Positions 17,501 to 20,500 of a stretch of DNA of 64,000 nt are shown in pieces. The stretch covers positions 24,815,033 through 24,879,032 of the forward strand of contig NC_067201.1 in assembly GCF_000699445.3 (NCBI RefSeq), in the 5' to 3' direction. The position numbers were made by a program, and so were the translations under genes. The notes under the pieces were generated by a model that made no database searches, was not told where the DNA came from, and saw nothing but the letters and a program-made list of their open reading frames with translations. This DNA comes from Schistosoma haematobium. Its lineage: Eukaryota; Platyhelminthes; Trematoda; Strigeidida; Schistosomatidae. Each line of letters starts with the position of its first letter. The first letter of the stretch is position 1.

Positions 17501-20500
17501 TCGAATTCATTTGCTGAGATTTTACAAATACACTATTCTTTAATGACTATTCTAGGAGCTTGGCTATTATGATCTATTTTCTGAATATTTTAACCTTTTT
17601 CTAACAAATGAATTCCAATGGTCAAATAAGAGACTGATCATAAGGTTGATATCAAGTCAGCAGTTGTAGTGTTGTACAGAAGCCTTCAAGGGCGTATCCT
17701 AAGATTTATTGAAGCCTTGGCTATACGGAAACTGAAACCCCCTTTATGTGTTCATAAACAATTCGTTCTTACCCTTAACCTAGCCTAGTAATATTGGTTT
17801 ATTATCCAAAGTGGCTGTCAGATTGTTTTTGTATATTTTTTAATTGTTGAGATCATGAGTCAATTAAAGATAGACCAACATAGAAAACCTGGAAGCACTG
17901 GACGGCCGTTTCGTCCTATTGCGGGTCTCGCGCGCCAGCATCTAACCACTGGACCTCTGAGCCGGCATCCAACGGTGTTATTGTTTAACTTCAACTAATC
18001 CACGAAATTGAGCGACACACCCACCATTGTCATCAATGAGTTACTATCTCACAACTGACTCTGTTGAACTCCACTGGTCACGGCTTCTCACTAGAACTCC
18101 AGGATATACATCTTGAAGCCATTCATTAGTGAGCATATGTTGATTAATATCAGAAGGGGTTTTTGTAGAAATTTTAGTTATTTCAATTGTTGAGATCATG
18201 AGTCACTAGTGACTGGCTTCAATATGTATGTCCTGGAGATCTAGTGAGAAGCAGTGACCAGTGGAGTTCAACCGGGTCAGTTGTGAGATAGTAACTCACT
18301 GATGACAATGATGTATGTGTCGCTCAATTTCGTGAATTAGTTGAAGTTAGACATTAACACCGTTGGATGCCGGCTCAGTGGTCTAGTGATTAAGTGCTGG
18401 CGCGCGAGAGTGATAGGTCCTGGGTTCGGATCCCGCGGGGTGGGATCGTGGATGCGCACTGCCGAGAAGTCCCACAATAAGACGAAACGGCCGTCCAGTA
18501 CTTCTAGGTTTTCTATGTTGGTCTATCTTCAATTAACTCATGATCTCAACAATTGAAATTACTAAAATCTCCACAAAACCCCCTTCTGATATTTTATCTT
18601 TCTTTGTTATGGCTTACCTTTAACCTATCTAGTTGACCTTTTAGTTTTCATATAAAAGTGTTCTTAACAAGTATATATGTGATCAGATTGTTCGAAATTT
18701 ATTGCGCAATTAAATCACATATTTCTGATAACCTTTGTCTTCTCATTGCATTAAACTTTTTCTACTATATTCTTTCAAAGTTTATCAGCATCGTGATATT
18801 CTGGGCTGCACAATATACTACTTTATTCAGTGAGACTAATTTATGAACGACCTTTGAGCGGCGTCAAAGTAACCTTGAGAGTGTCCACCTAATAACTAGG
18901 ACCAAATGAGAGTTATAAACCAGTATGGGGAATCATAATTATGATTTACAGTTGATATTTAAAGTTAGAAATTAGATTTAGGGTTTTCATCACGAAATGA
19001 CATCAACTATAATGCCAAAACTCTATATAGTCAAATGGTTGAGTGACATTTCGCGCCAAAATCTAGGACCTGTCATTTTATACCTGATTGGTTCATCCCT
19101 AAATTATAGTCTCTCCACATAAAACAATAATCTTCATAAATTTCCTTTCTTATGATATTTCCTTTCAGATATCATATGAATATTTAATCTTGGCACTTGG
19201 AATAACTTTACGTTATGATAAGGTAAATATTTGTAACGTATATGTCCATTTTTCATAGACAAATTTTGAAATCATTATCTCATGCTTATATTGTAGTTAA
19301 GCTTCTTGTAACCTTTAAGTAGTAGAATCGCTGAGCTTGTTCATTGATCTTTCACATCTGCATAAATTGTGTCATTCTGATTTCCGGCTTTTCCTCTGAA
19401 CACTGTGTCAGTTTGTGGTCAACCGATCTTTCAGTCGCAACGTAGAATTTGGTTCATATGTGTATAATTAATATAACTTGGAGGTAGTATCCTACTTGAA
19501 TAGATCAAAATGTATATCCTTAACTGAGAATGAGAAACAAATATCAGACGTTGAAAATCACAAAAAGAAGTATAAACACTCACTTCAGAGACATTTCCTT
19601 GACCACCATTAATAATATCACAGATATTCTTTTCTAATATTCCCACCTGACCAGCTATAAATAATGCATCATAAAAGAATGAATTTACTCAATTTATGTG
19701 TAATGCATGACGGGAAATCTGTGATTAATATGATAATAGTTGTCTTTCAGTGGGGTAGAACTGATTGAATACCAAATCGAATATGACATTAGTGAACAAC
19801 ATTGTCTGTGCTTAGACTGTCATCAGGTTTTACGCCAATCGTACAATAAAATTTATACACATATATATGAATAAAGGATATTCGTATTTGAACAAAGATT
19901 TCTTCAAACAGTCAGTCGGTAGCAAAATTTAACCTGATATGTATGTACATCAATGAAAGTTGTCATACGACATTCGCTCAGAAAGATGAAATTATTAAGG
20001 CGAATTACACAGTGGTGATAGAAGTAGTAACAGTATCAGTGGAAATGGAAAAAACTGAGCATCGAAGATACGATTAGAGAAAATACAAATTTGTGACTTC
20101 AAAAGAATTATGAGGAATTCAGAAGCTCAGAATTAAGGAGGATACAAAAAATGGATGCAAATGCGCCACTCCAAATGATTTTGAGCTATATTATTTACAG
20201 TCTCTAACCATTGGTTACGATAATCACGCGGTCCCATGACCAGATAGTTTACATCTATTAACATGACCACATTTCGTTCGACCGTCCCTAAATTTCTTCC
20301 AGCCTAATCCTACACCACATAACACCACAGGTTGAGATAAGTGGAGGTTCGGGATACTTAACATATATCAGAACTAACTCAGTTGATAATCATTCACTAC
20401 CTCATTAATTAATTCACTATCCAACCTAATACTTATGTATAGCCTCGACATGGATCATTAGACAGTCTCAAAAGATAACAGTGATTCTTCCAAAACACTT

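What the first reader, a model, noticed from the sequence alone, without database searches (positions are those of the whole stretch)
19535..19842. Inverted copy of SQOR exon 8, splice sites included, in intron 3 of the same gene
The 71-bp exon 8 and about 240 bp of its intron flanks occur a second time on the opposite strand, 25 kb upstream. By eye the exon differs at three bases (one amino acid change, two silent) and keeps acceptor and donor. The two copies flank exons 4-7. Base pairing in the pre-mRNA could hide exon 8 (71 nt, frame-shifting if skipped) or bring introns 3 and 7 together and favour circular RNA of exons 4-7. In the sense copy the homology stops on one side at a SINE-2 (44311) and on the other exactly at the SR2 insertion point (44610), so mobile elements may have been involved in the duplication or in its decay. 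Sequence is direct; the RNA effects are inference.
Basis: partly seen in the sequence, partly recalled or inferred. Interest (0 to 1): 0.85.

Follow-up and report, generated by a model that had tools for sequence, protein, structure and literature searches.

The report
Backwards exon copy in parasite gene
A blood-fluke gene carries, inside one of its introns, an old backwards copy of one of its own exons, and a second copy of that arrangement lies 8 million bases away; it looks like a decaying duplication that may have swapped sequence with the working exon, and no effect on the gene has been shown.

Summary
Window 19535-19839 is an inverted copy (286 of 305 positions identical, E = 9e-131) of 44308-44610, which contains SQOR exon 8 with both splice sites. 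The exon copies differ at 3 of 71 bases (one amino acid change, Thr to Ile). The copy lies in intron 3, 312 bp after exon 3. Divergence, distinct flanks and a third copy argue against an assembly error.

That third copy (FAR), 8 Mb away on the same contig, carries exon 3 plus the inverted exon 8 in the same order as the window (91% identical in non-coding single-copy DNA); SQOR protein found no other exon there. So the inversion predates FAR. Yet exon 8 and its inverted copy share Val-Gly where FAR, S. rodhaini and S. japonicum have Ala-Ala. This hints at later gene conversion; non-coding divergence alone does not show it (p = 0.20).

Surviving splice sites and frame are what chance gives (68%). 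The pair is one of 18 inverted-repeat pairs in the gene and not the strongest by computed pairing. No RNA data were available. Most likely this is an old, neutral inverted duplication.

The parts
19535..19839 (-). Inverted copy (Inv) of exon 8 with 234 bp of its intron flanks
   Evidence: BLASTN 286/305 identical to 44308-44610, minus strand; 3 of 71 exon and 14 of 232 non-coding differences, 2 gaps
19584..19654 (-). Copy of the 71-nt exon 8 inside Inv; encodes AGQVGILEKNICDIINGGQGNVSE with the leading G supplied
   Evidence: translation
44308..44610 (+). Sense locus (E8): end of intron 7, exon 8, start of intron 8
44492..44562 (+). SQOR exon 8 (71 nt, AGQVGTLEKNICDIINGGQGNVSE with the leading G supplied)
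   Evidence: matches SQOR proteins; AG and GTGAGT
19169..19222 (+). SQOR exon 3 (54 nt, ISYEYLILALGITLRYDK), 312 bp upstream of Inv
   Evidence: tblastn with SQOR proteins; AG and GTAAAT
18930..19786 (+). Stretch (exon 3 plus most of Inv) that is also present, colinear apart from a 517-bp insert, at FAR = G000:C7:16823502-16824878 (minus)
   Evidence: 506/559 plus 267/301 identical
18900..19118 (.). High-copy dispersed repeat just upstream of exon 3
   Evidence: 38 of the 40 scored loci match only up to query position 213-234 of 641; 4421 first-look candidates
44149..44308 (+). SINE-like element whose 3' end abuts the E8 homology; its 5' end is approximate
   Evidence: other window copies align from 44149 and up to 44308-44309; element name SMalpha is recalled and by analogy with PMC8490949 passages
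44207..44252 (+). Type I hammerhead ribozyme match in that element, sense strand of intron 7
   Evidence: Rfam RF00163, 40.2 bits, gathering 34
44611..45201 (-). Strand judged by eye from a reverse-transcriptase-like reading frame
   Evidence: 7172 first-look candidates in the genome

Best explanation
A 305-bp piece of SQOR (exon 8 and its intron edges) was copied in inverted orientation into intron 3 of the same gene, probably by a templated insertion during repair or replication (inferred). Later the stretch exon 3 + inverted exon 8 was itself copied about 8 Mb away (FAR; shown by colinearity, the order of events inferred). Both extra copies are most likely non-coding and drift neutrally (inferred). 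The intron-3 copy may since have exchanged sequence with the working exon by gene conversion (suggested, not shown). Effects on splicing are possible in principle but most likely negligible.
For: Inverted 94% match. Genome search with Inv finds 5 matches (5 of 5 candidates scored): Inv, E8, two redundant contigs and FAR. FAR is colinear with window 18930-19786. A search of the genome with SQOR protein gives 22 matches: all lie in the window, on contigs C80/C81, or at FAR (exons 3 and 8 only). In the 3.3 kb compared, C80/C81 differ from the window only by one-base homopolymer indels. Non-coding divergence is ordinary: E8-Inv 14/232, window-FAR 49/543. Splice sites plus frame survive by chance in 68% of 20,000 simulations. 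FAR exon 8 has seven amino acid differences from E8, as an unconstrained copy would. The published assembly used Nanopore and PacBio long reads (PMC8846543, passages).
Against: Both ends of the homology coincide with retroelement borders in E8, which a random templated insertion does not explain. The retroelement piece at E8 looks older (about 9% per lineage) than the E8-Inv split (about 3% per lineage). The E8-Inv distance (6.0%) is smaller than window-FAR (9.0%), although FAR must be the younger event; not significant (p = 0.20). Inv-FAR differ more over the exon (12/71) than over non-coding single-copy DNA (49/543), p = 0.054, which plain neutral drift does not predict. No transcript data were examined.
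Confidence: 0.75

Rival explanations
1. The inverted copy pairs with exon 8 in the pre-mRNA and promotes exon 8 skipping or circular RNA of exons 4-7.
For: 303-305 nt complementary stretch, computed duplex -473 kcal/mol, enclosing exons 4-7 and covering exon 8 itself. Skipping 71 nt would shift the frame.
Against: 17 other inverted pairs were found in the same gene, two with stronger computed pairing. 24.5 kb separate the arms, so intron 3 is likely spliced first (general knowledge). The 7 fluke SQOR models in A1 that reach exon 8 all contain it; weak evidence, since most are from species where Inv is unknown and one model per cluster was seen.
Confidence: 0.08
2. Inv and exon 8 have been homogenised by gene conversion after FAR was made, so that coding changes in S. 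haematobium exon 8 and its intronic copy evolved together.
For: FAR carries the exon 3-Inv junction, so it branched after the inversion, yet E8 and Inv share Val-Gly (GTGGGA) where FAR has Ala-Ala (GCGGCC), the state of S. rodhaini and S. japonicum proteins. Inv-FAR differ more over the exon (12/71) than over single-copy non-coding DNA (49/543), p = 0.054. E8-Inv (6.0%) is closer than window-FAR (9.0%). All-site counts FAR 19, Inv 8, E8 6 give p = 0.05 and 0.015, but this leans on the exon, where E8 is under selection.
Against: Intron site counts E8 6, Inv 5, FAR 10 fit a simple history (p = 0.30 and 0.45); two one-base indels also set E8 apart from Inv and FAR, as plain descent would, though one of them is absent from redundant contig C81. 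Fisher p = 0.20 for the distances. Trichobilharzia and Heterobilharzia also have Val-Gly, so this position changes repeatedly. Mutations in FAR could have converged on Ala-Ala.
Confidence: 0.4
3. A mobile element captured or moved the exon (Helitron-like or retroelement-mediated).
For: Homology ends at a SINE 3' end and at the direct repeat flanking a retroelement piece.
Against: By eye Inv has no flanking target-site duplication; the genome search finds only one further locus with the arrangement; no element sequence was recognised inside the duplicated stretch.
Confidence: 0.1
4. Assembly artefact.
For: Two redundant contigs of the E8 region exist (C80, C81), so the assembly is not perfectly purged.
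Against: 6% divergence, distinct flanks, third copy FAR with the same flank, long-read assembly. Reads themselves were not examined.
Confidence: 0.02

Closest known systems
Intragenic duplication of an exon into an intron (internal gene duplication; general knowledge)
   Same: A single exon with short intron flanks is copied within its own gene.
   Different: Orientation is inverted and the copy is 24.5 kb from the source, so it cannot be used as an extra exon in the sense transcript; it was copied on once more together with exon 3.
Reverse-complementary intron repeats that favour circular RNA (Alu pairs in mammals; general knowledge)
   Same: Inverted complementary stretches lie on either side of exons 4-7.
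   Different: Low-copy exon DNA rather than a mobile element; one arm contains an exon; no circular RNA evidence; 17 other inverted pairs in the same gene.
Templated insertion by template switching or break repair (PMC8421209 and PMC11724301, starts of abstracts in the search listing only)
   Same: A short stretch from a nearby locus appears inverted at a new site without visible target-site duplication.
   Different: 305 bp is longer than the inverted insertions described in the PMC11724301 abstract (most about 5-34 bp); the mechanism here is inferred.

Membership tests
Intragenic exon duplication | Copy of an exon plus flanking intron within the same gene | tested here: met
Intragenic exon duplication | Copy usable as an extra exon in the sense transcript | tested here: not met
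   copy is on the opposite strand
circRNA-promoting intronic inverted repeat | Complementary stretches in introns flanking the exons | tested here: met
   (one of 18 pairs)
circRNA-promoting intronic inverted repeat | Back-spliced RNA exists and depends on the repeats | not testable with these tools
   no RNA-seq available
Gene-converting inverted repeats | Copies more alike than their age, shared private changes | tested here: inconclusive
   Val-Gly shared by E8 and Inv against FAR; intron counts not significant
Transposon-captured exon | Element ends or target-site duplication around the copy, several mobilised copies | tested here: not met
   by eye no target-site duplication around Inv; only one further locus with the arrangement

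The most novel reading that the evidence does not exclude
The intronic inverted copy acts as a conversion partner of the working exon: coding changes (Ala-Ala to Val-Gly) in S. haematobium SQOR exon 8 spread between the exon and its own backwards copy, with the homogenised tract bounded by the two retroelements in introns 7 and 8.
Probability: 0.3. Interest if true: 0.5.

Novelty: new member of a known kind. Interest (0 to 1): 0.3.

Why it matters
It is a clean, roughly datable case of an exon copied backwards into its own gene, with a third copy that acts as an internal outgroup. If gene conversion is confirmed, it would show that silent intronic copies can feed coding changes into a metabolic enzyme. 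If not, it is a good neutral control for claims that intronic inverted repeats cause circular RNA.

Tried and rejected
Residual homology beyond the retroelements was sought and not found: 3' side score 134 against shuffles 137.8 +/- 7.0 (138 of 200 shuffles as high); 5' side as low as shuffles or lower (200 of 200 and 193 of 200 as high). FAR as a whole SQOR paralogue was rejected: a genome search with SQOR protein finds only exons 3 and 8 there. Surviving splice sites and frame as evidence of function was rejected (chance 68%). The first three-copy alignment included misaligned columns at its left end; the counts used are. A relative-rate test on all sites (19/8/6) looked stronger (p 0.05 and 0.015) but leans on the exon, where E8 is under selection, so the intron-only test is preferred. 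The age of the SINE at E8 could not be measured because the search did not complete. The copy number of another inverted pair (13128-13616) likewise did not complete. A search with E8 as query did not complete.

Full report
What the window is. The window is G000:C7:24815033-24879032 of a 400,267,458-base assembly in 163 contigs. Passages of PMC8846543 give 163 scaffolds and 400,271,889 bases for the Schistosoma haematobium assembly Shae.V3, made with Hi-C, Nanopore, mate-pair and PacBio data, so I take it to be that species; the totals differ by 4,431 bases. The gene is sulfide:quinone oxidoreductase on the plus strand: PDB matches and 99% identity of the conceptual peptide (309 aa, exons 5 and 6 left out) to a S. 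intercalatum protein. Exons, counted from the ATG at 11395: 11395-11586, 12641-12811, 19169-19222, 22992-23189, 29016-29156, 32874-32939, 38392-38584, 44492-44562, 46814- (edges read). A further first coding exon at 9487-9546 would shift the numbers by one.

The observation. 19535-19839 matches 44610-44308 on the opposite strand at 286 of 305 positions with 2 gaps. Exon 8 differs at 3 of 71 bases and the flanks at 14 of 232. The translations are AGQVGTLEKNICDIINGGQGNVSE for exon 8 and AGQVGILEKNICDIINGGQGNVSE for the copy. The inverted copy (Inv) begins after 312 bp of intron 3.

Other copies. A genome search with Inv gives 5 matches, all 5 candidates being scored: Inv, the exon-8 locus (E8), contigs C80 and C81, and C7:16823502-16823753. 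C80 and C81 repeat the E8 region. In the 3.3 kb compared, C81 differs from the window by four one-base homopolymer indels (plus one edge effect of my cut) and C80 by two; over longer stretches identity is 99.4-99.9%. They look like assembly redundancy. The C7:16.82 Mb locus (FAR) is more informative. It matches window 18930-19488 (506/559) and 19486-19786 (267/301) in the same order and orientation, with a 517-bp insert between them. It therefore holds exon 3 and the inverted exon 8 side by side. Of the matched stretch, 18900-19118 is a high-copy repeat: 38 of the 40 scored loci (of 4421 candidates) match only up to query position 213-234 of 641, and only the window and FAR match beyond. FAR is thus a fragment copied after the inversion.

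Divergence. Non-coding single-copy differences between window and FAR are 49 of 543 (9.0%); between E8 and Inv 14 of 232 (6.0%); Fisher p = 0.20. If nothing but descent acted, E8-Inv should be at least as diverged as window-FAR. Site counts in introns are E8 6, Inv 5, FAR 10 (p = 0.30 and 0.45), and in the exon 0, 3 and 9. Two one-base indels set E8 apart from Inv and FAR, one of which is absent from contig C81. The exon is more diverged between Inv and FAR (12/71) than the surrounding non-coding DNA (p = 0.054). At two adjacent codons E8 and Inv read Val-Gly while FAR reads Ala-Ala; S. rodhaini and S. japonicum proteins also have Ala-Ala, but Trichobilharzia and Heterobilharzia have Val-Gly. 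The simplest reading is that the Schistosoma state was Ala-Ala, FAR kept it, and E8 and Inv share a later change through gene conversion. Convergence in FAR is not excluded.

Age. PMC6361461 (passages) gives about 97% similarity between S. bovis and S. haematobium and 85% between S. bovis and S. mansoni. E8-Inv at 6% lies between, so without conversion Inv should be shared by the haematobium group and absent from S. mansoni. This is a prediction; I had no other schistosome DNA to search.

Borders. In E8 the homology ends directly before GAGTCACTTTA, one of two copies (44611-44621, 45191-45201) that flank a 569-bp retroelement piece, and begins within about 1-2 bp of the furthest point reached by other copies of a SINE-like element (44308 and 44309). 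No homology resumes beyond either element. From pairwise distances to 28 other copies (27 fetched loci plus the window's own second copy, of 37 other full-length rows), the retroelement piece is about 9% diverged on its own lineage, against about 3% per lineage for E8-Inv. So the element was probably already there at the last common state of E8 and Inv. The compared copies come from the 40 scored of 7172 candidates, and subfamily structure may inflate the estimate. Why both ends coincide with element borders remains unexplained.

Function. In 20,000 simulated neutral copies at the observed rate, 68% keep both splice sites and the frame (54% at the FAR rate), so their survival says nothing. Inverted-repeat pairs inside the gene number 18 at E <= 1e-6; E8/Inv has a computed duplex of -473 kcal/mol, behind -659 (13128/28424, enclosing exons 3-4) and -490 (14002/15561, local). 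The 7 fluke models in A1 that reach exon 8 all contain it. No RNA data were available. Literature: searches for Schistosoma with circular RNA terms (10 of 1,069 listed, 6 of 9 listed), for inverted exon duplication (11 papers, none, one) and for SQOR in Schistosoma (none) showed nothing on this gene or arrangement in titles and abstract starts; those papers were not read.

Verdict. The feature is real and very unlikely to be an assembly error. It is best read as an old inverted exon duplication, copied once more to FAR, that is decaying and may have undergone gene conversion with the working exon. The proposed RNA effects are possible but have no support here.

Noticed in passing
window 26669-26787 (+): Full-length U5 spliceosomal RNA match (Rfam RF00020, 74.8 bits) inside SQOR intron 4.
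   Followed up: no
window 18456-18501 (+), 26511-26555 (-), 43316-43361 (+), 44207-44252 (+): Four type I hammerhead ribozyme matches in SQOR introns (17000-48000 searched), three on the sense strand; the last lies about 240 nt upstream of exon 8.
   Followed up: no
G000:C80 (31,327 bp) and G000:C81 (53,543 bp): Contigs repeating the window's E8 region at 99.4-99.9% identity; in the 3.3 kb compared, differences are one-base homopolymer indels only. Likely assembly redundancy.
   Followed up: partly
proteins P0088 (S. bovis) and P0091 (S. mattheei): Both models lack 18 residues at the place of exon 3 (54 nt, in frame), the exon next to Inv. Could be missed annotation or real skipping.
   Followed up: no
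G000:C7:16823384-16823500 (L006 6885-7001): FAR is bordered on its other side by a second, more diverged and shortened copy of the dispersed repeat that lies upstream of exon 3 (6885-6987 by BLAST, the rest by eye).
   Followed up: partly
window 9487-9546: Upstream first coding exon of SQOR (MFRLEIVYKLFHFMRFPKEE) matching the start of the S. intercalatum protein and followed by GTAAGT; exon numbers would shift by one.
   Followed up: partly
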